A DNA stretch of 64,000 nucleotides from Paratrimastix pyriformis (taxonomy: Eukaryota; Preaxostyla; Paratrimastigidae): positions 62,001 to 126,000 of the forward strand of contig JAPMOS010000089.1 of NCBI GenBank assembly GCA_027972325.1, read 5' to 3'. Below, in pieces: positions 7,965 through 63,921 of the stretch. The notes beneath the pieces were generated by a model, which saw only the letters and a list, made by a program, of their open reading frames with translations, was not told where the DNA came from and did no database searches. The translations under genes were made by a program, and so were the position numbers. Position 1 is the first letter of the stretch; each line of letters opens with the position of its first letter.

Positions 7965-12368
<4,404 letters not shown>

Positions 12369-25060: not shown

Positions 25061-26413
25061 ATGGGCGATGAATACCGTGCCGGCACCGCCCAGCGTGTCG
25101 GGGGCGCTGTTCTTTGGGCAGGTGCGGCCAAGACGCTCCTGCATTCGGTCGCTAGAGTTTCTTCTTACCAAAGACCGTATGCGGACCTGAGCAGCGATGT
25201 GCTTGGCCTCATCTTCCTGCGGCTCAACCCGAGCGAACTGGCTGCGGTTTCTCGGGTTAGCCGCCAATTTCACGATGTTGCCCAACAAGACTTCATCTAC
25301 AAGCGCCTCTTCGAGGAGGTCATGCTGCCCGCGATTCCCGACGAAGATGTCGGCGATGCCCTCACAAAGACTCGCCAGCTCTGGGAGGCCGGGGGCTGGT
25401 CGTACAAGGACCGGTGCAAGTCCTGTGCGGGCATGATCCGCAAGACAAAGAGCGCCGCCAAGCGTGAATACGTGAGCTACGAGTTGCACCACAGCTACGC
25501 GCTCGTCTCGCGCCCGGTCATGTTGGGGCTGCTGTACAGCGGCTTCTACGCGCTGATCTGCAAGGCCGATGGGGTGGTGCCCTTCTGGATACCCCGGCGG
25601 CTCCTGACGGGGTCCTGGCTGCTTGCGGGCACGCCCTGCCTGCTGGGTGCTGGCGTACTGCTGCCCTGGTGCCTGAACGCTCTCCGGTCCCCGTCGCTGG
25701 CCTGCTACCGGCTCTTCGGGCTGACCTGGCTGTCCCTGATGGCCAGCACGGCCCTGTCGCTGGCCCGCCTGGACGGGCTGCTCCGCGTCTCCATCACCCG
25801 GGCCTGGCTGCCCGCCCTGACCGTCTCGACGGTGTGCGCCGTGCGGTCGAGGACGCGCGCCCGCCGGTACCTCGAGCGGACCTGGGACCAGTGGACCGTT
25901 TGTGTGTGCGTGGCCCTGTGGCTCGTTCTGCTGCCCCGAATGACGAGCGCCAATCCAGCATGGTGGTTTGTCCTGTCGCCGCTAGCCCTGCCTGCTCTTG
26001 TGCTCGCCTGGTTCCTGGGCCGCCAACGCAACCTTGGGATCTCGATCATCACATGGGTGCCGTGGTTAGGTCCGTTGGTTGCGGGGTCGCGTATTTCCGA
26101 TTGGTTCCGCCCTTTTCCTTTTATTGGGGCCGTTTTTTCTTGTCCGACCCTGGCACTCTTGCCTAGTTACAGCTCTCTCATCCCCTCTGTTCCGCCCGCC
26201 TGCGTCCCCCGCATAGCTGAATACGCCGGCCTCTGCATGCGGCTGGGCGGGCGGCCGGTTGCCCTGCGCGGGCTCTTCGTCGTGCCCTTAGTCCTCTCGT
26301 TCCTCATGATCGCCTTTGTTCTGTTGCCGCTCCGGGAGCGCGTGGCACACTACAATCCCCCGGGCATGCAACGGCTGGGCATGTCCGTACACACCACACG
26401 CACGCACACCTGA
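25061..26413 (+). CDS. F-box protein with multiple predicted membrane segments
   Basis: A protein of 450 residues from ATG 25,061. Residues about 40-85 form an F-box (YADLSSDVLGLIFLRLNPSE, then LAAVSRVSRQFHDVA, then IYKRLFEEV). A basic Cys-containing segment follows (DRCKSCAGMIRKTKSAAK). From about residue 155 onward there are six or seven hydrophobic stretches, including the LLTGSWLLAGTPCLLGAGVL, VCVCVALWLVLLP, WWFVLSPLALPALVLAWFLG and VVPLVLSFLMIAFVLLPL regions. This suggests a membrane-anchored ubiquitin-ligase adaptor, an uncommon arrangement. A splice donor at 26,387 (TCC|GTACAC) may join this frame to a downstream exon near 26,637-26,844, in which case the stop at 26,411-26,413 is intronic. 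A further intron between about 26,050 and 26,190 is possible. Confidence 0.65.
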   Translation: MGDEYRAGTAQRVGGAVLWAGAAKTLLHSVARVSSYQRPYADLSSDVLGLIFLRLNPSELAAVSRVSRQFHDVAQQDFIYKRLFEEVMLPAIPDEDVGDALTKTRQLWEAGGWSYKDRCKSCAGMIRKTKSAAKREYVSYELHHSYALVSRPVMLGLLYSGFYALICKADGVVPFWIPRRLLTGSWLLAGTPCLLGAGVLLPWCLNALRSPSLACYRLFGLTWLSLMASTALSLARLDGLLRVSITRAWLPALTVSTVCAVRSRTRARRYLERTWDQWTVCVCVALWLVLLPRMTSANPAWWFVLSPLALPALVLAWFLGRQRNLGISIITWVPWLGPLVAGSRISDWFRPFPFIGAVFSCPTLALLPSYSSLIPSVPPACVPRIAEYAGLCMRLGGRPVALRGLFVVPLVLSFLMIAFVLLPLRERVAHYNPPGMQRLGMSVHTTRTHT

Positions 26414-33630: not shown

Positions 33631-34220
33631 TTGCAATCCGATTCTGATGGAAGCGCCAGCCCATCGAGGGCCCCACCGCCCTCTCCCTCGCCGTGCGGTG
33701 ACCATCCGCGGCTGTTCGTGGCCAGCCAGGGCGGGAGGAAGTCCACCATGGACACAGAGGCCTTCCTCAGGGGGGGCGGGAAGCTGACGCTGATTCCGGT
33801 GCTGGGCGACCCGCCCCTCTACCGGCACCTGCCCGGGCCCAGCCTGCAGAAGAAGGCGCGGCCCGAGGACCCCGACATCATCGACCCGTACCACGTGCTG
33901 GGCGTGGGGGCCTTCGGGATCTCGTTCAAGCTGGGCGACACTCGGAAGGGCCAGGAAGACGTGGCCCTGAAGGCCACCGCGGCCCCCCAGACGGACCTGG
34001 AGCGGATGATGATCAACAACGAGAGCTACATCCCCGCCGCCGTGCACCATCCCAACGTCCTGCCCGCCGCGGGGCCATCCATGGAGGTGCGGGTCTGGTC
34101 TTGCCCTCTCTCGTGCCTGGCACCCACCCGGCTGGCGCACGCCTGCCACACACTTCATCATCATCTCATCCAATCATCATCCAATCATCATCATCCTGAC
34201 GAGGTGTGCTTGGGCGATGA

Positions 34221-34254
<34 letters not shown>

Positions 34255-35132
34255 GGATGATGATGCTGATGATTGGATGAGGGCCTTGTTGGGAATCTGG
34301 GAAGTCCGACGGCATGAGGACTAAAAATACCAACTGCCTTTGGTGGAGAGCTGGGATTTGACACCCTCTGTTCCTTCCACCGAAAAATCGTCCCAGTTTT
34401 TCGGTTTTGATGATGATGATTGGATGATGATTGGATGATGATTGGATGATGATTGGATGATGATTGGATGATGATTGGATGATGATTGGATGATGATTGG
34501 ATGATGATTGGATGATGATGATTGGCTTCTGATGATTGGCTTGATGATGATTGGCTTATGATGGTTGGATGACTGTGATGATGATTGGATGATGATGATG
34601 ATTGGCTGATTGGATGATGATGATGATTGGATGGTGTTGATGTTGTTGATGTTGGTGTTGATGTTGATGATGGTGATTAGATGGTGTTGATGTTGTTGAT
34701 GATTGGATGGTGTTGATGATTGGATGGTGATGATGTTGATGATGATGTTGATGTTGATGATGTTGATGTTGATGATGTTGATGTTGATGTTGATGTTGAT
34801 GATGTTGATGACCGGATGTTGATGACCGGATGTTGATGACCGGATGTTGATGACCGGATGTTGATGACCGGATGTTGATGACCAGATGTTGATGACCGGA
34901 TGTTGATGACCGGATGTTGATGACCGGATGTTGATGACCGGATGTTGATGACCGGATGCTGATGATTGGATGATGATGATGATGATGATTGGACGATGAT
35001 GAGAGGATGAGAGGATGATGATGAGATGATGATTGGAATGATCGGATGATGATCGGATGATGATGATGATGGTTGATGATGATGGTTGATGATGATGGTT
35101 GATGATGATGGTTGATGATGATGGTTGATGAT

Positions 35133-35171
<39 letters not shown>

Positions 35172-37973
35172 TGATGATTGGATGATGATTGGATGATGAT
35201 TGGATGATTGGATGATGATTGGATGATTGGATATCGGATCCATGCAGAGCTCATCGCCCATGCCCACATCGCCGAGAGATTGCGTTGTTCACCCACCCAT
35301 CCCCGTCCCGCAGCTTGAGCCGGGCGGGCCGGTGCTGCGGTGTCTGTTGACGCCCTTCTGCGAGGGGGGCGACCTGGACAAGGTCATCCGGCGCCACCTG
35401 CGCAGCCCCTCGGCCGACCCGGACGCCGACCGGGAGGAGCGCTGGTGGCTGCTGGTGGACATGGTGCGCGGGCTGGCCTACCTGCACGGCAAGCCCTTCG
35501 AGCAGAACGACCGCCGGGTGCTGCACAACGACATCAAGCCGGCCAACGTGCTGCTGCGCCGCGACCCGGCCACGGGCCGACTGATGGCCCTGATGGCCGA
35601 CCTGGGCATGGCCTGCGAGTACACGGGCGGCTCGGCCAACTACGGGCTGCTCATCCGGGGCACGCCCGGCTTCATGGCGCCCGAGCTCTACGCGGGCACG
35701 GCCGAGGGACAGGCCCTGCTGGAGGCCTCGGGGATGCGGCCGGGCAACACGCCCGCGACGGACGTCTACGCGATGGGTGTGACGCTGTTCTGCCTGTACA
35801 CCCAGACGGACACGGCCCACAAGACCGAGGAGCGGCCCTCGGAGGAGGAGCTGCGTGAGGCCTTCGCCGAGGTGGGCGAACTGGAGGCAGCGGCCGGCTT
35901 CCAGCCGGCGGTGGGGCTGGTGGGGCTGCTGGTGCGCATGTGCAGCGAGAACCCCACTGGCCGCCCCGACATGGCCCGCATCCGGGAGGCCGTCGAGCCC
36001 GTCGCCGCGGTCCGCACCCCCCGCCAGCCCCGGGGTTTTGTGGGATGGGACCGCTGGATGTCCAGACTGTCTTGTCTGTTCGTCTGTGCTGGCTGTTGAT
36101 CTGTCTCTTTGTGGTCGCTGGCTGGGCTGGGCTGTCTGGCTCGAGGTGTGGTGGCGGTTTTGGTTCGGACGCCGCGCTGGTTGGCCCAATGTCCAACGTT
36201 TGCTCCTTCCCCCAGGCCCTCGAGGAGGCGGCCCGCCGCAGGGCAGCCGAAGAGGAGGCAGCCCGTCGTAGGGCAGCAGCCGAAGAGGAGGCAGCCCGCC
36301 GCAAGGCCGTCGAGGAGGCAGACCGCAGGGCAGCCGAAGAGGAGGCAGCCCGCCGCAAGGCAGCCGAAGAGGAGGCAGCCCGCCGCAAGGCAGCCGAAGA
36401 GGAGGCAGCCCGCCGCAAGGCCGTCGAGGAGGCAGCCCGCCGCAAGGCCGTCGAGGAGGCAGCCCGCAGGGCAGCCGAAGAGGAGGCAGCCCGCCGCAAG
36501 AGGAGGCAGCCCGCCGCAGCCCAGCGGAGGCGGAGGTCTGCTGGATGTGGGGGCTGGGTGGCGGAGCGAAGGCGCCTTGGCGAGGGCAACGTCGTGCCCG
36601 TTGTTCACACACGGCGTTCACTTGGCATCACTCCCTCCCCCCCAGCGAGCGGCGACCTTGGAATTGGAACGGACCCTGACGGAGGGCGAGCGAGCCGCCC
36701 TCGATTTGGCCCGCCGCTGCACAGAGACGGAGGTCTGCCCTGTGGTGGCTGGTGGCTGGTGGCTGGCGCCGCGGGCAGTGGGGAGGGCGTGAAGGCGAGT
36801 GACGCTCATCGACGGGGGTGGCGGCGTCTGCTGATGGGATCGGGGCGGCCCCAGCTGGACCTCGGGAGGTGAGGGGGGCGCGCCAAGTTCATGGTGTGCC
36901 TGGCGGCCTGGCTGAAGACCAACCGCACCGTCACCAAGGTCTGCCTGCTGGCGACCGGCTCTCGCCCTTCGATATGGCTGCAGCAGGGTCCCGCCTTGCA
37001 ACGCACTGGGCGGGCAGATGACCGCCTTGGGCAAGACAGGAGAGGCAGGTGACTTGGGCCTCGCCTTCTTCGTTGTGGCACCCCACTCTGCTTTCCGCTC
37101 GCCCTCACCTCCACCATTGCTCGCACCACCCACTCGGTTTCGGCATCTCGGCCGCTCATCGGCTGCTGCTCTGCGGCCGTGGCACGGACGCTCCGCACCC
37201 GACCGGTGGTCATCGCCCATCTCAGCTCAACCTCCGCGGCAACGAGATTGGCGCCGAGGGGGCGCGTGTCCTTGCTGGGGCGCTGGAGCACAACACCAGC
37301 CTCCAAATGGCCCAGCCCAGGGAGGAGCGCGGACGAAGGGGCCCACCCAGCATGACACCCCACACCCCGCCGACCACACCAGCCCCAACCCTGCCCCCGG
37401 TGTGGAGGTTGCCCCGTCGTTGTCGGCCCTTCGTTGTTGTTGCAGCCCCCACCGCCCGCCCGCCCGCCCGGCCACCCCACTCTGCTTTCCGTTCGCCCTC
37501 ACCTCCATCATCGCTCGCACCACCCATTCGGTTTCGGCCTCGGTCACTCCTCTGCTGCTTTGTGGCCATGGCACGGACGCTCCGCGCATGGCCGCCCCGG
37601 TGGTCATCGCCCATCTCTCAGCTCAACCTCATCTACAACCGGATTGGCGACGAGGGGGCGCGTGCCCTTGCGGGGGCGCTGGAGCACAACACCAGCCTCC
37701 AGCAGGTCTGCTGGCCCAGCCCAGGGAGGAGCGCGGACGAAAGGGGCCCACCGCACACCCCACACCCCGCCGACCACACCACCCAGCCACCAGCCCCAGC
37801 CCCGCCCTGCCCCTGGCATGCCGCATCTCCGGCATCCGCCTCACCTTTTCGTCTTCCCCTTGCCCTTCCCCCCCGCTCCTCTTCATCTCATCCCGCAGCT
37901 TGACCTGTACCCAAAAATTGCAGATCCAATCCAGCGCCTCTTCCCGCCCACCCGTGTGCGCTTCTTGCACTAA
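33631..37973 (+). pseudogene. Kinase/coiled-coil/LRR gene A, decayed copy
   Basis: Exons by comparison with C: kinase N-lobe (about 33,631-34,086; LGVGAFGISFK, VALKAT), kinase C-lobe (35,314-36,009; VLHNDIKPANVLL, ADLGMA, GTPGFMAPE), coiled coil (36,216-about 36,537), helix exon (36,646-36,732), LRR cap (about 36,863-36,942), two LRR exons (37,226-37,309 and 37,622-37,705) and a terminal exon (37,899-37,973; IQRLFPPTRVRFLH). Relative to B and C it lacks 8 nt across the acceptor of the first kinase exon (GCATTGCAATCC), lacks 8 nt in the coiled coil near 36,500, has an in-frame TGA in the cap exon, and has lost the donor of LRR1 (CTCCAAATGGCC). It therefore looks like a pseudogene, although the kinase C-lobe frame is intact. 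It has only two LRR exons against about eleven in C. Confidence 0.75.
34140..35235. repeat. GATGATTGG/GATGTTGATGACCG repeats in the gene A kinase intron
   Basis: The intron 34,087-35,313 between the kinase lobes is filled with GATGATTGGAT repeats, GTTGATGTT repeats (34,625-34,810) and eleven or so TGATGACCGGATGT units (34,800-34,960). The orthologous introns in B and C carry related ATC/GAT repeats. Confidence 0.93.
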
Positions 37974-45395: not shown

Positions 45396-46990
45396 CTGCA
45401 GACGATCAATCTGCCCGAAGGCCGGGTCACGGAGCCAGGGATGTCGACATGTCCCAGCCCCTGGCCGCGGCCTCCCCAGCACACTCACTCCCCCTGCGGT
45501 CCGATTGGGGCCAAGAAGAGCAATCGGGCCAAAGGAAGGAATTTCAAGGTGGGTGAAGTGGAGGGAAAGAGGAAGAGGGAGAGGAAGGGGAAAACAGGTG
45601 GGGCGGAAGGGCTCAAGGGGATTAAAAGTCGGAGAAGCGCTGAATCGGTTTTGCCAACGCTGAGGACAGGACAAGCTGCGGGATGAGATGAGGAGCGGGA
45701 GAAGGGCAAGGGGAAGAGGAAAGGTGAGGCGGGCAGGGCGGGGCTGGGGCTGGTGGCCAGGTGGTGTGGTCGGCGGCGGGGTGTTGTGTGGTGTGGTGGG
45801 CCCCTTCGTCCGCGCTCCTCCCTGGGCTGGGCCAGCAGACCTGCTGGAGGCTGGTGTTGTGCTCCAGCGCCCCCGCAAGGGCACGCGCCCCCTCGGCGCC
45901 AATATCGTTGTTGTCGAGGTAGAGCTGAGATGGGCGATGACCAGGCGGCCAGGTGCGGAGCGTCCGTGCCAGGGCCGCAGACCAGCAGCCGAGGAGCGAC
46001 CGAGGTGCCGAAAGCGAGTGAGTGCGAGCGATGATGGAGGTGAGCTCGAGCGGAAAGCAGTGTGCGAGTGGCCGGGCGGGTGGGCGGTGGGGCCTGCAAC
46101 AACGACAACGATGGGGCAAGGCAAGGCGGCCTCGGCTGGTGGCCGGGTGCTGTGGTCGGCGGGTGTGTGTGTGGTGGTCCCCTTCCTCCGCGCTCCTCCC
46201 TGGGCTGGGCCAGCAGACCTGCTGGAGGCTGGTGTTGTGCTCCAGCGCCCCCGCAAAGGCACGCGCCCCCTCGGCGCCAATCCCGTTGCCGCCGAGGTCG
46301 AGCTGAGATGGGCGATGACCAGCGGGGCGGCCAGGTGCGGAGCGTCCGTGCCAGGGCCGCAGAGCAGCAGCCGAGGAGCGACCGATCGAGGTGCCGAAAC
46401 CGAGTGGGTGCGAGCGATGATGGAGGTGAGCTCGAGCGGAAAGCAGTGTGCGGGTGGCCGGGCGGGCGGGCAGTGGGGCCTGCAACAACGATAACGACGG
46501 GGCAAGGCAAGGCGGCCTCCACCAGGCGGGGCTGGTGGCCGGGTGCTGTGGTCGGCGGGGTGTGGGGTGTGGTGTGGTGGGCCCCTTCCTCCGCGCTCCT
46601 CCCTGGGCTGGGCCAGCAGACCTGCTGGAGGCTGGGGTTGTGCTCCAGCGCCCCCGCAAGGGCACGCGCCCCCTCGGCGCCAATCTGGTTGCGGCTGATG
46701 TCGAGCTGAGATGGGCGATGACCAGCGGGGCGGCCAGGTGCGGAGCGTCCGTGCCAGGGCCGCAGAGCAGCAGCCGAGGAGCGACCGAGGTGCCGAAACC
46801 GAGTGGGTGCGAGCGATGATGGAGGTGAGCGCGAGCGGAAAGCAATGTGCGGGTGGCCGGGTGGGCGGGCGGTGGGGCCTGCAACAACGACAACGACGGG
46901 GCAAGGCAAGGCGGCCTCCATGGAAGGCAGCAGGCCGGGCTGGTGGCCGGGTGCTAGTAAGAACTACTGGTGCTGTGGTCGGCGGGGTGT

Positions 46991-47590
46991 GGGCACGGCC
47001 CGCCACGACCGGATGGTCCGCCGACTCTGGGCGTGGTTCGGCGGTCAACGTAATGGGTCACGCGACACTACATGGGCGTGTCGGCAACCAACACTGCGCC
47101 CGCCCTCCCACCCTCCCTGCTGGCCAAGCTGCCCGCCACCCTCCGCAATGTGCACCAAGACTTGGTGCTGCAATCCCGCGGGGCGGAGGGCGCCTGGTGG
47201 CTCCTCGACGTGGCCGTCACGGGGCAGACGCACGACTGGCCGATATTAGCAGCGGGCAAGGCGGCCCCCACAGGGCAGCCCTGCCAGGCTGTCCCAGTCG
47301 TCTTCTCCGCCCAGGAGACCGTGCCGCGGGCCACATGTCAGGCCCTCATGCGGCTGACACCGGCGACCCCGCAACCGTGCGGACCGGCCTCCAGCGGGCC
47401 CTCTCCTCGGTCTCGACTCTGCTGGTCCACGACGCCCTCGCACTCATGACCACGCGCAACGGCGCCGCTGCCGCTGCCGTGGCGGCCACCGCGGGCCCGT
47501 CGGGTGGGCCACGCCGGGGTCGTGCTCCGGCACGCCACCAGTGAGCCCCCCCCCCTCCCTCGCAAATACACCGCTTGTCTCTCTGGGGCG
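46991..47590 (+). mobile_element. LINE-A fragment inserted in an LRR intron of gene B
   Basis: From GCACGGCCCGCCACGACCGG onward it matches 1575-2150: GVSATNTAPALPPSLLAKLP, LLDVAVTGQTHDW, GPASSGPSPRSR/LVHDALALMTTRNGA in shifted frames. It ends in GCAAATACACCGCTTGTCTC, the LINE-A tail. It breaks the intron sequence GGTCGGCGGGGTGTGG, which resumes as GGCGTGTGTGTGGTGGTCCC. It is 5'-truncated and opposite in orientation to gene B. Confidence 0.85.
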
Positions 47591-49879
47591 TGTGTGTGGT
47601 GGTCCCCTTCGTGCTCCTCCCTGGGCTGGGCCAGCAGACCTGATGGAGGCTGGGGTTGTGCTCCAGCGCCCCCGCAAGGGCACGCGCCCCCTCGTCCCCA
47701 ATCTTGTTGGAGCTGAGGTCGAGCTGAGATGGGCGATGACCAGCGGGGGTCCGTGCCAGGGCCGCAGAGCAGCAGCCGAGGAGCGACCGAGGTGCCGAAA
47801 GCGAGTGAGTGCGAGCGATGATGGAGGTGAGCGCGAGCGGAAAGCAGTGTGCGGGTGGCCGGGCGGGCGGGCGGTGGGGCCTGCAACAACGACAACGATG
47901 GGGCAAGGCAAGGCGGCCTCCACCAGGCGGGGCTGGTGGCCGGGTGCTGTGGTCGGCGGGGTGTGGGGTGTGTGTGTGGTGGTCCCCTTCCTCCGCGCTC
48001 CTCCCTGGGCTGGGCCAGCAGACCTGCTGGAGGCTGGGGTTGTGCTCCAGCGCCCCCGCAAGGGCACGCGCCCCCTCGGCGCCAATCCGGTTCTCGGAGA
48101 GGTTGAGCTGAGATGGGCGATGACCAGCGGGGCGGCCAGGTGGGGAGCGTAGGTGCCACGGCCGCAGAGCAGCAGCCCGAGGAGCGACCGAGATGCCGAA
48201 ACCGAGTGGGTGCGAGCCACAACGAAGGCGAGGCTCACGAGTCACCTGCCTCTCGTGTCTTGCCCAAGACTGATCCCAATGCGATCGATTTGCCCGCCCA
48301 GTGCATTGCAAGGCGGGACCCTGCTGCAGCCATCGAAGGGCGAGAGCTGCTCGCCAGCAGGCAGACCTTGGTGACGGTGCGGTTGGTTTGCAGCCAGGCC
48401 GCCAGGCACACCATGAACTCGGCGCGCCCGCCGCAGATGAGCTCCAGCTGGGGCCGCCCCGATCCCATCGGCAGACGCCGCCCCCGTCAGACCAGCGATG
48501 ATGATGATGAACGTCAATCGCCTTCCCGCCCTCCCCACAGCCGGGGCGCAGCCACCAGCCACACAGGGCAGACCTTCGTCTCCGTGCAGCGGCGGGCCTT
48601 ATCGAGGGCGGCTCGCTCGCGCCCCGTCAGGCTCCGTTCCAGTTCCAAGGCGGCCGCTCGCTGGGGGGGAGGGAGCGAAGCCAAATGAATGCCGAGTATG
48701 AACAACGACGATGGAGCCCACCGCAGGGGTAGCCAAGACGCCTTCGCTCCGCCAGACCTCCGCCTCGGCTGCCCTGCGACGGGCTGCCTCCTCGACGGCT
48801 GCCTTGCGGCGGGCTGCCTCCTCTTCGGCTGCCCTGCGACGGGCTGCCTCCTCGACGGATGTCTTGAGGCGGGCTGCCTCCTTTTCGGCTGCCCTGCGGC
48901 GGGCTGCCTCCTCGAGGGCCTGGGGGAAGGAGCAAACGTTGAACATTGGCCAACCAGCGCGGCGTTCGAACCAAAACCGCCACCACACCTCGAGCCAGAC
49001 AGCTCGCCAACACACAGCCAGCCAGCACAGCCACAGACAACAGACAGTCTGTACATCCAGCGGTCCCATCCCACAAAACACAAACCCAGGGCTGGGCGCT
49101 GGCGGGGGGTCCGGACCGCAGCGACGGCCTCGACGGCCCCCCGGATGCGGGCCATGTCGGGGCGGCCAGTGGGGTTCTCGCTGCACATGCGCACCAGCAG
49201 CTCCACCAGCCCCACCTTGCAGCCGGCCGCTGCCTCCAGGTCGCCCACCTCGGCGAAGGCCTCCCGCAGCTCCTCCTCCGAGGGCCGCTCCTCGGTCTTG
49301 TGGTCCGAGTCTGTCTGGGTGTACAGGCAGAACAGCGTCACACCCATCGAGTAGACGTCCGTCGCGGGCGTGTTGCCGGGCCGCATCCCCGAGGCCGCCA
49401 TTGCCCGCGTAGAGCTCGGGCGCCATGAAGCCGGGCGTGCCCCGGATCAGCCCGTAGTTGGCCGAGCCGCCCGTGTACTCGCAGGCCAGGCCCAGGTCGG
49501 CCAGCAGGGCCATCAGACGGCCCGTGGCCCGGTCGGGGCGCAGCAGCACGTTGGCCGGCTTGATGTCGTTGTGCAGCACCCGGCGGTCGTTCTGCTCGAA
49601 GGGCTTGCCGTGCAGGTAGGCCAGCCCGCGCACCATGTCCACCAGCAGCCACCAGCGCTCCTCCCGGTCGGCGTCCGGGTCGGCCGAGGGGCTGCGCAGG
49701 TGGCGCCGGATGACCTTGTCCAGGTCGCCCCCCTCGCAGAAGGGCGTCAACAGACACCGCAGCACCGGCCCGCCCGGCTCGAGCTGCGCGGGGGGGACGG
49801 GGGGGATGGGGACGCGGGGACGGGGATGGGTGGGAGTGAACAACGCAATCACTCGACGAGGCGATCGCATCATCCGATC

Positions 49880-50510
<631 letters not shown>

Positions 50511-51048
50511 GGCGTGTGCCAGCTATGGGTGCCAGGCACGAGAGAAGGCAAGACCAGACCTGCACCTCCAGGGGGGGCCCCGCCGCGGGCAGGACGTTGG
50601 GGTGGTGCACGGCGGCGGGGATGTAGCCCTCGTTGTTGATCATCATTCGCTCCAAGTCAGTCTCGGGGGCCGCGGTGGCCTTCAGGGCCACGTCTTCCTG
50701 GCCCTTCCGAGTGTCGCCCAGCTTGAAGGAGATCCCGAAGGCCCCCACGCCCAGCACGTGGTACGGGTCGATGATGTCGGGGTCCTCGGGCCGCGCCTTC
50801 TCCTGCAGGCTGGGCCCGGGCAGGTGCCGGTAGAGGGGGGGGTCGCCCAGCACCGGGATCAGCGTCAGCTTCCCGCCCCCCTTGATGAAGGCCACCGTCT
50901 CCAGGGTGGACTTCCTCCCGGCCACGAACAGGCGCGGATGGTCACCGTACGGCGCCGGTAGGCTTGTCGCCGGCGAGGGAGAGGGCGGGGGCGGTGGGGC
51001 CGATGGGGCCGATGGGCTGGGGCTTCCGCCAGAATCGGATTGGGTCTC

Positions 51049-54755: not shown

Positions 54756-56036
54756 CAGTATGTCCAACAATAAACGAGCCACTCCTTTTCATGTCAGAGC
54801 GAGTGCACCAAGAGGGAGCCGGGGATTTTTCTGAGTGCCACGCATGCACAACACCACAAGGACTCCACCCATCCACTTAGTATTTGGTGTGGCCACCGTG
54901 GGCCCGAATGACGGCACGAAGTCGGTCGGGCATCGAGTTGGCCAACTTTTCAGGGAGGTCGGCGTCCATGGTGGCCCACTCGGCCTTGAGCACCCGGATC
55001 AATCCAGCGAGCGTTTCGGGGTGGCGTTCAAGCAGCTTCCTCTTGAGGAGTGCCCACACGTTTTCCATCGGGTTGAGGTCGGGGCTCTGTGGGGGTAGCC
55101 CGATGTCGGTCAAGTTCTCCTCGGCGACCCGGTCCGTCACCAAGTGGGACCGGTACTTGGGATCGTTGTCATGCAGCAGCACCCGGCCCTCGGGGCCCTC
55201 AACACACACCTCGAGGGCAGAGGGCACAAGCTCATCAGTCACAATCCGGGCCATGAGGGGGCAGCGAGGTTCTCCTGGAAGGGAACAGACGTCCCCATCC
55301 ACCCTGACCGAAGCAACCGTGGAGGTTAATCTTGGCCGGATGCTTCACAGTGAGGACAGGCTTGCGCTTCCCAGGGTAGCCCCAACTCTTCGTGGCTTGT
55401 GCATGCAGGCGGGCGGTGCACTCGTCAGAAAACAGCACGCAGCTCCAGTCACGGTGCAGGTTGGCACGGGCAAAGGCGAGCCGTTTCTTCATGATGGCCG
55501 GGGTGAGGGTGGGTTTCTTCGGATTGCCCCCAGCGCAGGCCCACGGTGAAGAGGCGCGAGCGAACAGTCTCATGGGAGGTGAGTGCCCTTCGTAGTCTTC
55601 ACTTGTGCAGCAATGGACCGCAGGGAGGGCTTGGCCGGGGACATGGAGAGGGAAATCATCTTCCGGTCAGTGGGCGGGGTGGTGGCCCTTGTCCGACCAA
55701 GATGAGCCTTGTCCGCCAACGGTTGGCCGGCGCCAACCCGCACCGCCCAGCGTGAGACAGTGTGCCGGTTCACTCCCAATTCGGCTGCCACCGAGGTGCG
55801 GGTGCGCCCCTGCTGCACAAAAACCGCGACTCGGGCTCGATCGAGGGCAGAAAGTCGAGGCATGAAAAAAATCAATCCTGTGCTCGGTGTGGGTAGGCGT
55901 TTGGGGGGAGCTGGATGGCAGACCTGAGGCACGGCGGAGCACTGAGCATAATGCAAGGGGCCCCCCGGAGCCCGGGACCCCTCTTGCCCGGGGAACCAAA
56001 AAATTATGGGTGGCTAGTTTATTGTTGGACATACTG
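54756..56036. mobile_element. Tc1-type DNA transposon with terminal inverted repeats
   Basis: Inverted repeats of at least 20 bp: CAGTATGTCCAACAATAAAC at 54,756-54,775 and its reverse complement at 56,017-56,036, extending imperfectly through AGCCAC. Both ends are flanked by TA (54,754-54,755 and 56,037-56,038), the Tc1/mariner target duplication. Total length of 1281 bp is normal for the family. It carries one transposase gene on the minus strand. Confidence 0.93.
54877..55863 (-). pseudogene. Tc1-family transposase (DD34E), frameshifted
   Basis: From ATG 55,863 the first part encodes an N-terminal helix-turn-helix (RTSVAAELGVNRHTVSRWAV) and ends at a stop at 55,570. The middle (about 55,573-55,300) is in another frame and has RDWSCVLFSDECTARL, with the first catalytic Asp. 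The last (to TAG/TAA at 54,877) has LLHDNDPKY with the second Asp and SPDLNPMENVW with the Glu, spaced by 34 residues. All catalytic residues are present, but at least two frame changes (near 55,570-55,600 and 55,270-55,300) separate the parts, so this copy is probably inactive in cis. Confidence 0.85.
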
Positions 56037-56087: not shown

Positions 56088-56630
56088 CTACTTTACGTGA
56101 CTGGGTTCCTCTGCCGTGAAGTCGGCAATGGCATCCTGAGTGAGCGGGTCCAGCGGGTCCTTGTTGGGGTCGTTGTTGAACTCGTCGGAAGGAGGAAGCC
56201 GATCCGGCTCCGAGAGAAGCGAATGAGGCTGGTCATCTTCTGGGTCGGGGGATGAGGGGGCCTCTTGGTCTTCTTGAAGCTCGGTGGCCTGCTCTTCTTG
56301 TTGCTCGGCCTGCTCGGTGGCCTGCTCTTCTTGTTGCTCGGCCTGCTCGGTGGCCTGCTCTTCTTGTTGCTCGGCCTGCTCGGCGGCCTGCTCTTCTTGT
56401 TGCTCGGCCTGCTCGGCGGCCTGCTCTTCTTGTTGCTCGGCCTGCTCGGTGGCCTGCTCTTCTTGTTGCTCGGCCTGCTCGGTGGCCTGCTCTTCTTGTT
56501 GCTCGGCCTGCTCGGTGGCCTGCTCTTCTTGTTGCTCGGCCTGCTCGGCGGCCTGCTCTTCTTGTTGCGCGGGGGCAGGTTCGGCGGCATGCGCGGAGGA
56601 GATCATGGTGCCGGTCCCAGCCGTCGGCAA
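56088..56630 (-). CDS. Unknown acidic protein with 11-residue Glu/Gln repeats
   Basis: A 180-residue frame from ATG 56,630. After a short Ala-rich start it has about nine copies of an 11-residue unit ([11 protein letters not shown] or [11 protein letters not shown]), then an acidic Pro-rich tail ([20 protein letters not shown]) ending TAEEPSHVK. The repeats are strongly helical and may form a coiled coil. Upstream exons are possible, since the codon before the ATG is also open. No family recognised. The stop lies 52 bp from the Tc1 element, so the original 3' end may have been displaced. Confidence 0.4.
56270..56570. repeat. 33-bp coding minisatellite
   Basis: Units of GGCCTGCTCTTCTTGTTGCT plus CGGCCTGCTCGGT, about nine copies, alternating between GGTGGCC and GGCGGCC. 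Perfect 33-bp spacing keeps the minus-strand frame. Confidence 0.95.
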
Positions 56631-56987: not shown

Positions 56988-59900
56988 TTACAACGAGAAT
57001 ACCAAGCGGCTGGACATGAAGAGGCGCTGAATTGACTGTGGCAATGGGCCCAGGTCAAGCTGCGGGAGGAGAGGCGGAGCGGGGGGAAGGGCAAGGTGAA
57101 GACGAAAAGGTGAGCCATGACAGAGGCAAGGGCCTGTATGACGACAGGCATGGCGGGGCTGGTGGTGGCGGGGCTGGTGGCGGCGGGGCGGGAGTGTGTC
57201 TGTGTGTGGGGCCTCTTCCTCTCCTCCCTGGGCTGGGCCAGCAGACCTGCTGGAGGCTGGTGTTGTGCCCCAGCGCCCCCGCAAGGACACGCGCCCCCTC
57301 GGCGCCAATCTCGTTGTTGGAGAAGACGAACTGAGATGGGCGATGACCACCGGGCGGCGGCCAGGTGCGGAGCGTCCGTGCCACGGTCGCAGAGCAGCAG
57401 CCGAGGAGCGACCGATCGAGATGCCGAAACCGAGTGGGTGCGAGCGATGATGGAGGTGAGGGCGAGCGGAAAGGAGGCAGAGTGGTGCTGGCCGGGCGGG
57501 CGGGCGGTGGGGGCTGCAACAACAACAGGGCAAGCACGCCAGGCGAGGCGAGGCGAGGCGAGGCGGAGGCGGAGGCGGAGGCGGGGCTGATGGCCGGGTG
57601 GTGTCGGTGAGGTGTCGGTGAGGTGTCGGTGTGTGTGTGGTGGGCCCCCCTTACTCTCCTCCCTGGGCTGGGCCAGCAGACCTGCTTGAGGCTGGTGTTG
57701 TACTTCAGCGCCACCCCAAGGGCACGCGCCCCCTCGTCGCCAATGTTGTTGGAGCTGAGGTCGAGCTGGGATGGGCGATGACCACCGGGCGGCCAGGTGC
57801 CGTAGAGCAGCAGCCGAGGAGCGACCGAGATGCCGAACCGAGGGGGTGGTGCGAGCAGCGATGATGGAGGTGAGGGCGAGCGGAAAGAGGCGGTGGGGGG
57901 CTGCAACAACGACGGGGCAAGCATGCGGCCTCCATGACAGGCAGGGCAGGGCTAGTGGCCGGGAGGTGTCGGTGTCGGCGGGTGTGTCTGTGTCTGGGCC
58001 AGCAGACCTGCCGGAGGCTGGTGTGCTCCAGCGCCCCCGCAAGGGCACGCGCCCCCTCGGCGCCAAACCGGTTTTTGCCGAGGTTGAGCTGAGATGGGCG
58101 ATGACCACCGGGCGGCCAGGTGCGGAGCGACCGTGCCACGGCCGCAGAGCAGCAGCCGAGGAGCGACCGAGATGCCGAAACCGAACCGAGGTGCGTGCGA
58201 GCGAGGATGGAGGTGAGGGCGAGCGGAAACAGGCAGAGTGGGGCTGGCCGCAGCAGGGCAAGGCAGAGTGGGGCTGGCCGCAGCAGGGCTGGCCGCAGCA
58301 GGGCAGGGCAGGGCAGGGCAGGGCAGGGCAGGGCAGGGCAGGGCAGGGCAGGGCAGGGCAGGGCAGGGCAGGGCAGGGCAGGGCAGGGCAGGTGTGTGTC
58401 TGTGGGCCTGGGCTGGGCCAGCAGACCTGCTGGAGGCTGGTGTTGTGCCCCAGCGCCCCCGCAACGGCACGCGCCCCCTCGGCGCCAATCTCGTTCCAGC
58501 TGAGGGTGAGCTGAGATGGGCCGGGCGGCCAGGGGTGGAGCGTCCCGCAGAGCAGCAGCCGAGGAACCGAGTGGGTGGTGTGAGCGATGATGGAGGTGAG
58601 GGCGAGCGGAAAGCAGAGTGGGGCTGGCAGGGCTGCGACAACGACGGGGCAAGCATGCGGGTTCCATGCTAGGCAGGGAGGGGCTGGTGGCCGGGTGGTG
58701 TCAGCGGCATATGTGTCATCAGCGGCAAATGGGAATATGTGTCATCAGCTGCATGCCTCAAATGGCCCCTTCCTCTCCTCCCTGGGCTGGGCCAGCAGAC
58801 CTGCTGGAGGCTGGTGTTGTGCTCCAGCGCCCCCGCAAAGGCCCGCGCCCCCTCGTCGCCAATACCGTTCGCGCCGAGGTCGAGCTGAGATGGGCGATGA
58901 CCACCGGGCGGCCAGGTGCGGAGCGTCCGTGCCACGGCCGCAGAGCACCAGCCGAGGAGCGACCGATCGAGATGCCGAAACCGAGTGGGTGGTGCGAGCG
59001 ATGGTGGAGGTGAGGGCGAGCGGAAACAGGCAGAGTGGGGCGGGCGGGCGGGCGGGCGGGCGGGCGTCTGTGTGTGTGGTGGGCCCCCCTTCCTCTCCTC
59101 CCCGGGCTGGGCCAGCAGACCTGCTGGAGGCTGGTGTTGTGCTCCAGCGCCCCCGCAAGGGCACGCGCCCCCTCGGCCTTAATCCCGTTCCGGTTGAGGT
59201 CGAGCTGATGAGATGGGCGATGACCACCGGGCGGCCAGGTGCGTCCGAGCCACGGCCGCAGAGTAGCAGCCGAGGAGCCGAAACCGAGTGGGCGCGAGCG
59301 ATGATGAGGTGAGGGCGAGCGGAAGGGGCAGAGTGGGGCTCCTTCCTCTCCTCCTGGGCTGGGCTGGGCCAGCAGACCTGCCGGAGGCTGGTGCTGTGCT
59401 CCAGCGCCATCGCAACGGCACGCGCCCCCTCGTCGCCAATCTGGTTGCTGCCGAGGTTGAGCTGTGATGGGCGATGACCACCGGGCGGTCAGGTGCGGAG
59501 CGTCCGTGCCACGGCCGCAGAGCAGCAGCCGAGGAGCGACCGATCGAGATGCCGAAATCGAGTGGGTGCGAGGTGAGGGCGGGCGGGCGGGCGCGCGGTG
59601 GGGCTGCAACAACGAAGGCCTGCAACAACGACGGGGCATGCGGCCTCCATGCCAGGCAGGGCGGGGCTGGGGCGGGGCTGGCGTGTGGTGGACCCCTCTC
59701 CTTCCTCTCCTCCCTGGGCTGGGCCAGCAGACCTGCTGGAGGCTGGTGTTGTGCTCCAGCGCCCCCGCAACGGCACGCGCCCCCTCGGCGCCAATCCCGT
59801 TCCGGTTGAGGTCGAGCTGATGAGATGGGCGATGACCACCGGGCGGCCAGGGGTGGAGCGTCCGTACCACGGCCGCAGAGCAGCAGCCGAGGAGCGCCGC

Positions 59901-62900
59901 AGAAACCGAGTGGGTGGTGTGAGCGATGATGGAGGTGAGGGCGAGCGGAAAGAGGCAGTGGGGCTGGCCGGGCGGGCGGGCGGGCGGGCGGGCGGTGGGG
60001 GCTGCAACAACGAAGGCCTGGGGGCAAGCATGCGGCCTCTTCATGCCAGACAAGGCGGGGCTGGTGGCCGGGTGTCGGCGGCGGGTGTGTGTGTGTGTGT
60101 GTGTGGTGGGCCCCTTCCTCTCCTCCCTGGGCTGGGCCAGCAGACCTGCTGGAGGCTGGTGTTGTGCTCCAGCGCCCCCGCAAAGGCCCGCGCCCCCTCG
60201 TCGCCAATACCGTTGCAGCTGAGGTCGAGCTGAGATGGGCGATGACCACCGGGGCGGCCAGGTAGACGGGATGCCGACACCGAGTGGGTGGTGCGAGCGA
60301 TGATGGAGGTGAGGGCGAGCGGAAAGGGGCAGAGTGGGGCGGGCGGGCGGGCGGGCGGGCGGGCGGGCGGGCGGGCGGTGGGGCTGCAACAACGAAGGCC
60401 TGCAACAACGACGGGGCAAGCGGGGCTGGTGGCCGGGTGGTGTCGGCGGCGGGTGTCTGGTGGGACCCCCTTCCTCTCCTCTCTGGGCAGACCTGCTGGA
60501 GGCTGGTGTTGTGCTCCAGCGCCCCGCAGGCACGCGCCCCTCGGCGCCAATCCGGTTCTCGCAGAGGTTGAGCTGAGATGGGCGATGACCACCGACCGGG
60601 GCGGCCAGAGGTGCGGAGCGTCCGTGCCACGGCCGCAGAGCAGCAGCCGAGGAGCGACCGAGATGCCGAAACCGAGTGGGTGGTGCGAGCGATGATGGAG
60701 GTGAGGGCGAGCGGAAAGAGGCGGTGGGGGGCTGCAACAATGAAGGGGGGCAAGCATGCAGCTTCCATGCCAGGGGCAGGGCGGGGCTGGTGGCCGGGTG
60801 GTGTCGGCGGGTGTCTGTGTGTGTGGTGGGCCCCTTCCTCTCCTCTCTGGGCAGACCTGCTGGAGGCTGGTGTTGTGCTCCAGCGCCCCCGCAAGGGCAC
60901 GCGCCCCCTCGGCGTCAATATTGCAATCACAGAGGCGGAGCTGAGATGGGCGATGACCACCGGCGTGCCAGGGCCGCAGAGCGGAGCGACCGAGATGCCG
61001 AAACACCGTGTGGGTGCGAGTGATGATGGTGATGAGCACGGAAGGCAGAGCGGGGGCTGCTCAGTGCGTTGCAAGGCGGGACCCTGCCGCAGCCAGCGAA
61101 GGGCGTGAGCCGGTCGCCAGCAGGCAGACCTTGGTGACGGTGCGGTTGGTCTGCAGCCAGGCCGCCAGGCACACCATGAACTTGGCGCGTCCATTCCTGA
61201 GCCGCAGCTGGGGCCGCCCCGATCCCATCAGCAGACGCCGCCACCCCCGTCGGATCAGCGATGATGATGATGATGATGATGATGATGAGCGTCACTCGCC
61301 TTCCCTCCCACTGCCCGGGGCGCCAGCACCAGTCACCACAGGGCAGACCTCCGTCTCCGTGCAGCGGCGGGCCAAATCGAGGGCGGCTCGCTCGTCCTCC
61401 CTCAGGCTCCGTTCCAGTTCCACTTGCTGGGGGGGGGGGGTGGGGGGGGCGAGTGTGGGAACCAACGGGCACGACGTTGCCCCACCCACCGCGGAGGCCT
61501 CGCCAAGGCCGCCTTCGCTCCGCCACCCCAGCCCGCACATCCCATCCCCCAGACCTCCGGCTCGGCTGGCCTGCGGAGGGCTGCCTCCACTTCGGCTGCC
61601 CTGCGACGGGCTGCCTCCTCTTCGGCTGCCTTGCGGCGGGCTGCCTCCTCTTCACGTGCCTTCATGCGGGCTGCCTCCGCTTCACATGCCTTTCCCCAGA
61701 CTTCCCTCTCGACGTACTGGGGGAAGGAGAGCAAACGTTGAACATTGGGCCAACCAACGAGAGACGTCCGAACCAAAACCGTCACCACACCGCGAGCCAG
61801 ACAGCTCGACAACCCAACCCAGCCCAACCCAGCCCAGCCCAGCCCAGCCCAGCCCAGCCAGCACAAACTGATCGACAGACTCGACAGACAGACTCGACAG
61901 ACAGACTCGACAGACAGACCCGACAGACAGACCCGACAGACAGACAGACACGACAGACAGACTCGACAGACAGCCAGCCAGCCAACACAGCCAGACAGTC
62001 AGTACATCCAGGTGTCCCATCCCAAAAAAGCGGGGCTGGCGGGGGCTGCGGACCTGGTTGAAGTTCAGGACGGCCTTCTGGATGCGGGCCATGTCGGGGC
62101 GGTCGGTGGGCTTCTCGCTGCACATGCGCACCAGCAGCTCCACCACCTCCGCTGCCGCCGCCGCCGCCATCTGGCCGCCGCACAGCTTGCCCACCTCGGC
62201 GAAGGCCTCACGCAGCTCCTCCTCCGAGGGCCGCTCCTCGGTCTTGTGGGCCGAGTCCGTCTGGCTGTACAGGCAGAACAGCGTCACACCCATCGCGTAG
62301 ACGTCCGTCGCGGGCGTGTTGCCGAGCGGCACCCCCGAGGCCTCCAGCAGGGCCTGACCCTCGGCCGTGCAAGCCGAGGCCAGCTCGGGCGCCATGAAGC
62401 CGGGCGTGCCCCGGATGAGCGGCTCGTTGGACGAGCCGTCCGTGCACTCGCAGGCCATGCCCAGGTCGGCCAGCAGGGCCCTCAGCCGCGGCGGCTGCGT
62501 GTCCGGGGCGGGGCGCAGCAGCACGTTGGCCGGCTTGATGTCGTTGTGCAGCACCTGGCGGTCGTTCTGCTCGAAGGGCTTGCCGTGCAGGTAGGCCAGC
62601 CCGCGCACCATGTCCACCAGCAGCCACCAGCGCTCCTCCCGGTCGGCGTCCGGGTCGGCCGAGGGGCTGCGCAGGTGGCGCCGGATGACCTTGTCCAGGT
62701 CGCCCCCCTCGCAGAAGGGCGTCAACAGACACCGCAGCACCGGCCCGCCCGGCTCGAGCTGCGCGGGGGGGACGGGGGGGACGGGGGGGACGGGGACATG
62801 GACGGGGATGGGTGGGGGTGAACAACGCAATCACTCGACGAGGTGTGCATGGGCCATCATCATCATCATCATCATCATCCAATCTCAATCATCATCCAAT

Positions 62901-63921
62901 TCATCACGCCAATCATCATCACAACATCAATTATCACGGCATCAATTATCATCATCCTATCATCATCATCATCATCATCACCCAATCATCATCATCATCC
63001 GATCATCCTCATCATCACCCAATCATCGTCCACTCTCCATCCATTCATCAGTCATCACCCAGTCATCATCCAATCATCAACATCATCATTCTGACGAGGT
63101 GTGTATGGGCTACAGCTGGGTGGTGTGCATGGGTGTCAGGCACGAGGAGGGCAAGACCAGACCTGCACCTCCAGGGGGGGGCCCGCGGCGGGCAGGACGT
63201 TGGGGTGGTGCACGGCGGCGGGGATGTAGCCCTCGTTGTTGATCATGGCCCGCTCCAGGTCCGTCTCGGGGGCCGCGGTGGCCTTCAGGGCCACGTTTTG
63301 CTGGCCCATCCGAGCGTCGCCCATCTTGAAGGAGATCCCGAAGGCCCCCACGCCCAGCACGTGGTACGGGTCGATGATGTCGGGGTCCTCGGGCCGCGCC
63401 TTCTTCTGCAGGCTGGGCCCGGGCAGGTGCCGGTAAAGGGGGGGGTCGCCCACCACCGGGATCAGCGTCAGCTTCCCGCCCCCCCGGAGGAAGGCCTCGG
63501 TGTCCATGGTGGACTTCCTCCCGCCCTGGCTGGCCACGAACAGGCGCGCACCGCACGGCGGCGCCGGTTGGCTTGTTGCCGGCGAGGGAGAGGGCGGGGG
63601 CGGTGGGGGCGGTGGGGCCGATGGGCTGGTGCTTCCGCCACCGCACGGCGCCAACGGTGCTTGTGGGTCACCCAACGGTGCTTGTGGGTCACCCAACGGT
63701 GCTTGTGGGTCACCCAACGGTGCTTGTGGGTCACCCAACGGTGCTTGTGGGTCACCCAACGGTGCTTGTTGGCCACCCAACGGTGCTTGTGGGTCGCCGC
63801 ACGGCGCTTGTTGGCCAACGCACGGCGCTTGGCTTGCTGCCGGCGAGGGAGAGGGCGGGGGCGGTTGGGCCGATGGGGCCGATGGGTTGGTGCTTCCTTC
63901 TTCGGAATCCGATTGGGTCTC
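56988..63921 (-). CDS. Kinase/coiled-coil/LRR gene C, best-preserved family member
   Basis: Phase-0 exons: 63921-63169 (N-terminal low complexity, then N-lobe YHVLGVGAFGISFK, VALKAT), 62758-62054 (C-lobe: VLHNDIKPANVLL, ADLGMA for DFG, GTPGFMAPE), 61716-61555 (coiled coil, EEEAARRKAA units), 61426-61349 (ERAALDLARRCTETE), 61207-61130 (LRR cap, AKFMVCLAAWLQTNRTVTK), LRR exons 60940-60857, 60572-60493, 60229-60146, 59816-59733, 59461-59378, 59204-59121, 58884-58801, 58510-58427, 58088-58008, 57765-57682 and 57330-57247, and terminal exon 57059-56988 (IQRLFMSSRLVFSL). The second LRR exon is 80 nt and breaks frame unless skipped; 58088-58008 is 81 nt. The rest are 84 nt. The kinase keeps Lys, catalytic Asp, Asn and the DLG Asp. 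The N-terminal start exon was not found. Likely a cytoplasmic signalling kinase with an LRR recognition array; no signal peptide or transmembrane segment is seen. Confidence 0.82.
58250..58392. repeat. (GGGCA)n repeat in an LRR intron
   Basis: About twenty GGGCA units preceded by two GGGGCTGGCCGCAGCA units, within the intron between LRR exons 58510-58427 and 58088-58008 of gene C. Intron length therefore varies between otherwise similar units. Confidence 0.93.
61800..61990. repeat. (CCCAG)n and (GACAGACTC)n repeats
   Basis: AGCCC/AGCCCA repeats at 61,812-61,860 and GACAGACTCGACAGACAGA repeats at 61,870-61,975, in the intron between the kinase C-lobe and coiled-coil exons of gene C. Confidence 0.9.
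62845..63100. repeat. (ATC)n microsatellite in the gene C kinase intron
   Basis: Imperfect ATC/ATCCAATC repeats in the intron 62,759-63,168, the same position as in genes A and B. Confidence 0.9.
63650..63815 (-). repeat. 21-bp coding repeat in the N-terminus of gene C
   Basis: About eight units of ACCCAACGGTGCTTGTGGGT(C) encode a heptapeptide repeat on the minus strand (GDPQAPL/GGQQAPL). The region is absent from A and B, so it expanded in C only. Confidence 0.92.

What the first reader, a model, noticed from the sequence alone, without database searches (positions are those of the whole stretch)
56988..61207. One-exon-per-LRR array with variation concentrated on the recognition strand
In genes A, B and C each LRR is one phase-0 exon of 84 nt. 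Across about 18 repeats the second part (GAEGARALAGALEHNTSLQQ) is nearly constant, while the positions around LxLxxN differ almost every time: LNLSEN, LDISRN, LYLDNN, LRLCDC, LTLSWN, FVFSNN. In LRR folds these residues lie on the concave ligand-binding face. Constant framework plus variable face plus exon modularity is what one expects of a repertoire-building receptor, here fused to a protein kinase. Repeat numbers also differ: 2, 5 and 11.
Basis: partly seen in the sequence, partly recalled or inferred. Interest (0 to 1): 0.88.

Follow-up and report, generated by a model that had tools for sequence, protein, structure and literature searches.

The report
Kinase-linked LRR arrays with variable faces
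A free-living protist carries protein-kinase genes followed by recognition repeats that are near-copies down to their introns but differ at a few surface amino acids, which looks like natural selection building many binding specificities on one scaffold.

Summary
The window is from Paratrimastix pyriformis (Metamonada). Genes B, A and C carry 2, 5 and 11 ribonuclease-inhibitor-type LRR exons; 15 of 18 are exactly 84 nt, phase 0, AG|GT.

Of 76 such exons on five contigs, 54 canonical ones vary chiefly at codons 2, 4, 5 and 7 (LxLxxNx), the top four in each of six arrays. Within arrays pN there is 0.50, against 0.05 in other codons and 0.055 at synonymous sites of codons lying between them; introns differ by 0.05 (pairwise) to 0.32 (multiple alignment). 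A sampled second family (C49, C176) shows the same at codons 2, 4, 5, 27, 28.

Best reading: kinase / coiled-coil / LRR proteins whose repeats are duplicated and homogenised while diversifying selection acts on the strand face, as in PRDM9 zinc fingers and brown-algal LRR-ROCO genes. Ligand and immune role are inferred. An inverted copy of gene C kept all 44 exposed codons, so fast ongoing hypermutation is not supported; some exons are frameshifted in the assembly. New variant of a known kind.

The parts
63163..63471 (-). Gene C kinase exon 1 (N-lobe), matched part LTLIPVV...PPLEVQ; the exon may start further upstream
   Evidence: tblastn of annotated PAPYR_9050, 99% identity; open frame
62054..62758 (-). 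Gene C kinase exon 2 (LEPGG...LNFNQ; HND, DLG, APE motifs)
   Evidence: open, phase 0; Pkinase PF00069 71.8 bits on the annotated model P0001
61555..61716 (-). Coiled-coil-like exon of charged 15-residue repeats
   Evidence: the same segment is in P0001; coiled coil judged by eye
61349..61426 (-). Exon QVELERSLREDERAALDLARRCTETE (26 codons)
   Evidence: a counterpart is in annotated P0002, while P0001 skips it
61130..61207 (-). LRR cap exon LRLRNGRAKFMVCLAAWLQTNRTVTK (26 codons, phase 0)
   Evidence: published models PAPYR_9050 and PAPYR_9045 end by reading on from this exon into the following intron
60857..60940 (-). Gene C LRR 1 (LRLCDCN)
60493..60572 (-). Gene C LRR 2, 80 nt, frameshifted in this assembly; the corresponding exon of the inverted copy is 84 nt and open
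60146..60229 (-). Gene C LRR 3 (in the inverted copy this exon is the frameshifted one, 83 nt)
59733..59816 (-). Gene C LRR 4
59378..59461 (-). Gene C LRR 5
59121..59204 (-). Gene C LRR 6
58801..58884 (-). Gene C LRR 7
58427..58510 (-). Gene C LRR 8
58008..58088 (-). Gene C LRR 9 (81 nt, in frame)
57682..57765 (-). Gene C LRR 10
57247..57330 (-). Gene C LRR 11 (FVFSNN)
56988..57059 (-). Gene C last exon LDLGPLPQSIQRLFMSSRLVFSL and stop
45841..48107 (-). Gene A: five LRR exons (48107, 47723, 46705, 46302, 45924), each 84 nt
49105..51048 (-). Gene A kinase exons (annotated PAPYR_9045)
   Evidence: tblastn of P0003 and P0002
37226..37705 (+). Gene B: two LRR exons; the first lacks its GT donor
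33634..36048 (+). Gene B kinase exons
   Evidence: tblastn of P0002
56703..63631 (-). Window arm of a near-identical inverted repeat; the other arm is contig C484:130316-137307, outside the window
   Evidence: blastn 97.6% over 7027 columns, 33 mismatches, 43 gap openings; by MAFFT 58 mismatches in 6894 aligned sites, 25 gap events

Best explanation
These are members of a large P. pyriformis family of soluble, probably intracellular proteins: N-terminal domain, protein kinase, coiled coil, then a C-terminal ribonuclease-inhibitor-type LRR solenoid with one 84-nt phase-0 exon per repeat. Because every exon is symmetric and the introns are near-copies, units can be duplicated, deleted or converted by recombination without breaking the frame or the fold. 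Turnover keeps introns and helix-coding sequence nearly identical, while diversifying selection keeps and adds amino-acid differences at the exposed strand-side codons (2, 4, 5, 7 in one exon family; 2, 4, 5, 27, 28 in another). The result is a germline repertoire of different binding faces on one scaffold coupled to kinase signalling. Shown: exon anatomy, concentration of variation, its amino-acid-level nature, replication in a second family. Inferred: splicing of these particular arrays, recombination as the turnover step, ligand binding, that the ligands are non-self (bacterial prey, pathogens or other cells), and signalling through the kinase.
For: 54 canonical exons (six arrays plus one gene B exon): codons 2, 4, 5, 7 are the most variable in each of six arrays, with ties in two. 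Within arrays pN variable 0.498 (0.441-0.556), pN codons 9-28 0.054, pS of interleaved codons 1, 3, 6, 8 0.055 (0.009-0.108); ratio of pN variable to pS interleaved 9.5 (4.4-56). Pairwise intron substitutions 0.053 (0.041-0.067), ratio 9.4 (7.5-12.2). Codon 8 is ATT in 52 of 54 although third positions in two gene C kinase exons are about 97% G or C, and codon 1 is CTG in 0 of 54: the interleaved synonymous sites look young. Of 15 same-array pairs with at most 2 flank substitutions, 8 differ at 4 of 4 variable codons and 2 at 3. C178:14436/17921 has 0 substitutions at 185 aligned flank sites (about 100 nt each side, indels not counted), 0 of 24 framework codons changed, 4 of 4 variable codons changed; a few substitutions appear further upstream. 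52 distinct four-residue sets in 62 exons. Second family, 15 exons: 15 distinct five-residue sets, pN 0.507 variable against 0.014 in codons 9-25 and pS 0.033 interleaved. LRR_6 142.5 bits, ribonuclease inhibitor 1dfj E 1.4e-41. Model of a related LRR protein: strand at codons 28-2, helix at 9-22. Published gene models P0137 and P0138 of P. pyriformis paralogues join kinase and LRR.
Against: No transcript data were available to me; the published models for gene A and for the inverted gene C copy end before the LRR exons. Each of the two gene C copies has one frameshifted LRR exon in the assembly. By multiple alignment intron diversity is 0.05-0.08 upstream and 0.12-0.32 downstream, so the margin of the variable codons over introns is about 6-10-fold upstream and only 1.4-4-fold downstream. 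No variable codon changed between gene C and its inverted copy. Synonymous divergence inside the variable codons is also raised (0.26). In a toy simulation a 15-fold rate boost under ordinary turnover undershot the data (p at variable sites 0.28; 21 of 128 flank-identical pairs with at least 3 codons changed, against 10 of 15 observed); a 50-fold boost or a boost plus rejection of homogenisation came nearer. No ligand, expression or population data.
Confidence: 0.68

Rival explanations
1. A localised diversification process (short templated conversion of a roughly 20-nt cassette between LRR units, or targeted mutagenesis) creates the variation, with selection only filtering it.
For: Variable-codon differences are uncorrelated with intron distance (r 0.04, p 0.24) although upstream and downstream intron distances correlate with each other (r 0.285, p 0.010); among 10 codon pairs tested, codons 4 and 5 are linked (0 of 500 shuffles), three other pairs weakly (p 0.012-0.036), and one cassette, YLDNND, is shared letter for letter by arrays on C179 and C484; pS is raised inside the variable codons.
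Against: Interleaved synonymous sites a few nt away are not raised; third positions of codons 2 and 4 are far less variable than first positions; 0 of 44 variable codons changed between gene C and its inverted copy while 58 other mismatches accumulated, 54 of them outside the LRR, kinase and coiled-coil/cap exons. Of 8 cassettes seen more than once, only 1 is shared between contigs.
Confidence: 0.12
2. No diversification: the exposed codons are simply unconstrained and old, and the rest of each unit was homogenised by gene conversion that stops at the mismatched cluster.
For: The older arrays C399 and C1:214-216 kb also vary most at these positions, though other codons vary there too; x positions of LRRs are generally tolerant (recalled).
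Against: The conserved codons lying inside the window (1, 3, 6, 8) have intron-like synonymous divergence, 0.055 against pN 0.50 at their neighbours; in a toy simulation, rejecting conversion over the window without a raised rate lifts interleaved sites as much as variable ones (0.114 and 0.097), unlike the data.
Confidence: 0.08
3. Same molecules, different job: the solenoids bind internal partners (cytoskeleton, scaffold, RanGAP-like) or serve self/non-self recognition between cells, not sensing of microbes.
For: No membrane span in P0001 and P0003, which lack the LRR arrays; solved RI-type relatives include RanGAP and axonemal proteins; nothing here ties the genes to infection.
Against: 92 kinase-family stretches in the genome, several per gene, and amino-acid sets that seldom repeat (52 distinct in 62) are hard to reconcile with one fixed partner.
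Confidence: 0.3
4. Assembly artefact or decaying gene cluster: short-read polishing over-homogenised the introns, or the arrays are pseudogenes.
For: Frameshifted LRR exons (80, 80, 82, 83 nt) are 4 of 76 core exons, and a few more lack a splice border; the assembly combined long reads with Pilon polishing (PMC10703272, passages seen), which is weak in repeats (recalled).
Against: The two copies of gene C are frameshifted in different exons, as errors would be; 55 of 62 AG|GT exons are exactly 84 nt, while gap openings per site are 2 to 5 times commoner in introns than in exons; a second family on other contigs shows the same pattern.
Confidence: 0.07

Closest known systems
Brown-algal LRR-ROCO genes (PMC11378527; Zambounis 2012 known only through citations, not held)
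   Same: One LRR per exon, exon shuffling, positive selection reported at four sites on the concave face, candidate immune repertoire (abstract and two sections read)
   Different: There 72-bp phase-2 exons of 23-residue LRRs on a ROC-COR GTPase; here 84-nt phase-0 exons of 28-residue RI-type LRRs next to a protein kinase, in a metamonad, with near-identical introns as an internal reference
Tetrahymena 90-bp LRR exon arrays (PMC6564038)
   Same: Arrays of equal symmetric LRR exons, variable copy number, ectopic recombination, some fused to protein kinases, possible bacterial recognition (passages)
   Different: 90 bp, phase 2; its main text has no occurrence of 'positive selection' or 'concave'
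Human NOD/NLRC LRR domains (PMC6642158)
   Same: RI-type LRR, one 28-residue LRR per exon in most NOD and NLRC genes (passages)
   Different: NACHT proteins without this kinase; I saw no report there of recently homogenised arrays (passages only)
PRDM9 zinc-finger array (PMC3890296)
   Same: 28-codon repeats, nearly all variation at the ligand-contact codons, concerted evolution plus inferred selection (abstract and passages)
   Different: Tandem zinc fingers binding DNA; here LRRs separated by introns

Membership tests
Ribonuclease-inhibitor-type LRR | 28-29 residue repeats matching LRR_6 and RI structures | tested here: met
   LRR_6 142.5 bits, cut-off 23.4, on a composite of the cap and gene A LRRs; 1dfj E 1.4e-41
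Ribonuclease-inhibitor-type LRR | Strand then helix in each repeat, with the variable positions on the strand side | tested here: met
   Model of the related protein P0015 (mean pLDDT 79; block means 88-98 for residues 21-190): strand at codons 28, 1, 2 and helix from codon 9. Sequence of the window itself was not folded; that the strand face is concave is recalled.
Eukaryotic protein kinase | Pkinase profile above cut-off with catalytic motifs | tested here: met
   PF00069 71.8 bits, cut-off 31.7, on P0001; HND, DLG, APE read. HND rather than HRD makes it non-RD (class recalled).
Kinase-LRR fusion | Kinase and LRR in one transcript | tested here: inconclusive
   Same strand, compatible phase-0 exons; published models P0137 and P0138 of paralogues join them; models for gene A and the gene C copy stop before the LRRs
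Brown-algal LRR-ROCO system | One LRR per exon with selection on concave sites | tested here: met
Brown-algal LRR-ROCO system | ROC-COR domain | tested here: not met
   Pfam on P0001-P0004 finds kinase matches and, in P0002, a below-cut-off Paralemmin match; no ROC or COR
Plant-type LRR receptor kinase | Extracellular LRR, membrane span, intracellular kinase | tested here: not met
   Best 19-residue hydropathy 1.03 and 1.36 in P0001 and P0003, which do not include the LRR arrays; LRR exons lie 3' of the kinase exons
NLR | NACHT or NB-ARC domain | tested here: not met
   None in P0001-P0004 or the LRR composite
PRDM9-type hypervariable repeat | Homogenised repeats with variation at contact codons | tested here: met
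   works like it, not a member: no zinc finger in the scans. That the codons contact a ligand is inferred.
Somatically diversified receptor | Variation generated within one organism | not testable with these tools
   One consensus assembly, no reads

The most novel reading that the evidence does not exclude
P. pyriformis has an active, dedicated way of re-writing a roughly 20-nt recognition cassette inside each LRR exon (templated short-tract conversion or targeted mutation), making a protist kinase-LRR repertoire that diversifies at contact codons faster than selection on ordinary mutation could.
Probability: 0.1. Interest if true: 0.92.

Novelty: new variant of a known kind. Interest (0 to 1): 0.64.

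Why it matters
It places a contact-codon-diversified LRR repertoire in a free-living metamonad, far from plants, animals, brown algae and ciliates, and next to a kinase. The near-identical introns give a built-in neutral reference, so the idea that protists evolve recognition repertoires by exon turnover plus selection on the binding face can be tested directly with long reads and cultures. Because the published models of at least two of these genes end before the LRR arrays, such repertoires may be hidden in other protist genomes too.

Tried and rejected
DGR-like adenine mutagenesis was considered because codons 2 and 4 are mostly NNC. Rejected as unneeded: two kinase exons of gene C are also about 97% G or C at third positions, codon 6 stays AAC in 49 of 54, and codon 7 is mostly NNG. 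No search for such an enzyme was made. Site-model dN/dS (PAML) is not among the tools, and a passage of PMC3890296 says it cannot be applied to PRDM9 repeats because of concerted evolution; I used pairwise Nei-Gojobori proportions with bootstrap over units instead. The pairwise intron reference allows gaps freely and understates divergence; the MAFFT reference probably overstates it in low-complexity introns; both are reported. Rows dropped before the 54-exon counts: 11 inverted-copy exons and 11 with other lengths or borders, of 76; the two further C1 exons were not in those counts. The simulation is a toy with chosen parameters, for illustration only. One search found exons but its second half failed; redid it. 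In one search some loci were joined in the wrong orientation; redid this and only one search is used. The C449 stretch gave no LRR exon and the C481 stretch three. The protein searches scored only the 8000 candidates sharing most words and list at most 120. A search for papers holding both Paratrimastix and leucine-rich repeat returned none, one for hypervariable concave LRRs with introns none, and the genome paper's main text has no occurrence of LRR or leucine-rich; literature outside this library was not searched.


Full report
WHAT IT IS. A protein search with the kinase region next to the finding returned four Paratrimastix pyriformis proteins (94%, 82%, 76%, 70% identity) and then ten weak kinase matches, the best at E 5.8e-6 (8000 candidates scored). 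PAPYR_9050 and PAPYR_9045 lie on a contig of 161379 bases, the length of the window's contig C484. P. pyriformis is a free-living flagellate of the Preaxostyla (PMC10703272: abstract start in the listing, passages); that it is anaerobic is recalled.

THE OBSERVATION. nhmmer finds 18 LRR exons in the window: 2 in gene B, 5 in gene A, 11 in gene C. 15 of 18 are 84 nt, phase 0, AG|GT. One gene C exon is 80 nt and frameshifted, one is 81 nt, and one gene B exon lacks its donor. The reading of gene C runs kinase, charged coiled-coil-like exon, a 26-codon exon, a 26-codon LRR cap, 11 LRRs and a short last exon ending in a stop. The given interval is exactly cap exon to stop.

HOW FAR IT EXTENDS. The framework 39-mer occurs 76 times in the genome with up to 3 mismatches, reversed control 0; a 35-place pattern of the exon start occurs 112 times, reversed control 0. 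In the fetched stretches 76 core exons lie on C484, C178, C179, C113 and C1 (two more on C1). P0001 finds 92 matching stretches in the genome, exon by exon, so several per gene; 86 of 158 candidates were scored. Gene C has a near-identical inverted copy whose arm starts 4.7 kb beyond the first. Arrays with more diverged frameworks lie on C399, C481 and C1:214-216 kb.

WHERE THE VARIATION IS. In 54 canonical exons, codons 2, 4, 5 and 7 carry 9, 10, 13 and 10 different amino acids; the next most variable codons are 10 (A/D), 18 and 16. In each of six arrays taken alone codons 2, 4, 5, 7 are the top four, with ties in two. Within arrays pN at these codons is 0.498 and 0.051 in the other 24; pairwise intron substitution is 0.053. 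MAFFT alignments give upstream intron diversity 0.05-0.08 and downstream 0.12-0.32, against 0.40-0.54 for the variable codons; the downstream figure includes low-complexity sequence.

SELECTION OR MUTATION. Conserved codons 1, 3, 6 and 8 sit between or beside the variable ones and share their history; their synonymous divergence is 0.055 (0.009-0.108). Codon 8 stays ATT in 52 of 54 although T-ending codons are rare in the two kinase exons counted (7 of 339). So the neighbourhood looks young and the amino-acid-changing sites are saturated. This favours selection at the protein level over a plain mutation hotspot or an old unconstrained window. Against this reading, pS inside the variable codons is also raised (0.26), and a toy simulation needed a boost well above 15-fold, or rejection of homogenisation over the face, to approach the data. 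Of 15 same-array pairs with at most 2 flank substitutions, 8 differ at all four variable codons, 2 at three, 2 at two, 1 at one and 2 at none. Intron distance does not predict variable-codon distance (r 0.04), nor framework distance (r -0.002); framework and variable distances do correlate (r 0.19, p 0.002), so exons may also move as units.

NOT SEEN RUNNING. Gene C and its inverted copy differ at 58 of 6894 aligned sites by MAFFT (33 by blastn), 54 of the 58 outside the LRR, kinase and coiled-coil/cap exons, yet at none of 44 exposed codons, and exon order is the same. Conversion between the arms could hide change, but no fast ongoing process is seen.

REPLICATION. Exons on C49 and C176, with other introns and spacing of about 0.5-1.4 kb, vary at codons 2, 4, 5, 27 and 28: pN 0.507 against 0.014 in codons 9-25, interleaved pS 0.033, 15 of 15 residue sets distinct. 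Base differences are 0.457 at the variable codons, 0.092 in flanks and 0.016 in the framework; one pair has 1 substitution in 256 flank sites, 9 of 15 variable bases changed and 2 framework bases changed. The five codons were chosen after looking at this set, codon 7 being left out of both groups. Three 6-kb stretches were sampled, not the whole contigs.

STRUCTURE. The LRR part matches LRR_6 and ribonuclease inhibitors. A model of a related metagenomic LRR protein (P0015) puts the strand at codons 28-2 and the helix at 9-22. The variable codons lie in the strand or the loops beside it; that this is the concave face is established knowledge of RI, recalled.

FUNCTION. Kinase motifs HND, DLG and APE are present; the title linking non-RD kinases to pathogen receptors was seen only in a reference list. 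No membrane span was found in P0001 and P0003, which lack the LRR arrays. I therefore read these as intracellular sensors or adaptors that turn a bound ligand into kinase signalling. That is inference; microbial ligands, prey recognition and self-recognition are all open.

KNOWN RELATIVES. Exon-per-LRR arrays with selection on concave sites (brown algae, PMC11378527, two sections read), 90-bp LRR exons in Tetrahymena (PMC6564038, passages), one-LRR exons in NOD/NLRC (PMC6642158, passages) and contact-codon variation in homogenised 28-codon repeats (PRDM9, PMC3890296, passages) cover each element. New here, as far as these searches show, are the lineage, the kinase partner with the phase-0 84-nt unit, and the intron-controlled contrast. 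I file it as a new variant of a known kind.

Noticed in passing
contigs C49 (22-52 kb), C176, C213, C475 (whole genome): A second set of LRR-exon arrays with different acceptor (CAACGCAG); in the sampled C49 and C176 exons codons 2, 4, 5, 27, 28 vary. None of the kinase matches listed is on these contigs, but only 86 of 158 candidates were scored.
   Followed up: partly
window 11405-16636, + strand: 1744-codon open frame with reverse transcriptase and GIY-YIG domains, the combination of Penelope-like retroelements (class recalled), overlapping an 83-copy CAG repeat at 11493-11742.
   Followed up: no
window 24938-26410 and 22377-24665, + strand: Open frames with an F-box match and a below-cut-off LRR match.
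   Followed up: no
window 8421-10258: Tandem array of a 186-bp unit, 9.9 copies at 96% match, length divisible by three.
   Followed up: no
window 56279-56572, - strand: 33-bp repeat reading as glutamate/glutamine/alanine-rich, 8.9 copies at 98%, just downstream of gene C.
   Followed up: no
window about 55240-55900, - strand: Sequence that reads like a Tc1/mariner-type transposase relic (by eye, not searched).
   Followed up: no
L075 (C399) and L078 (C481): Near-identical paralogous stretches (3404 columns, 4 mismatches, 26 gap openings) sharing three LRR exons; C399 continues with seven more hits and the C481 stretch shows none.
   Followed up: partly
contig C484:110301-110459 and 132712-132888: Published models PAPYR_9045 and PAPYR_9050 read through the intron after the cap exon and so miss the LRR arrays.
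   Followed up: partly
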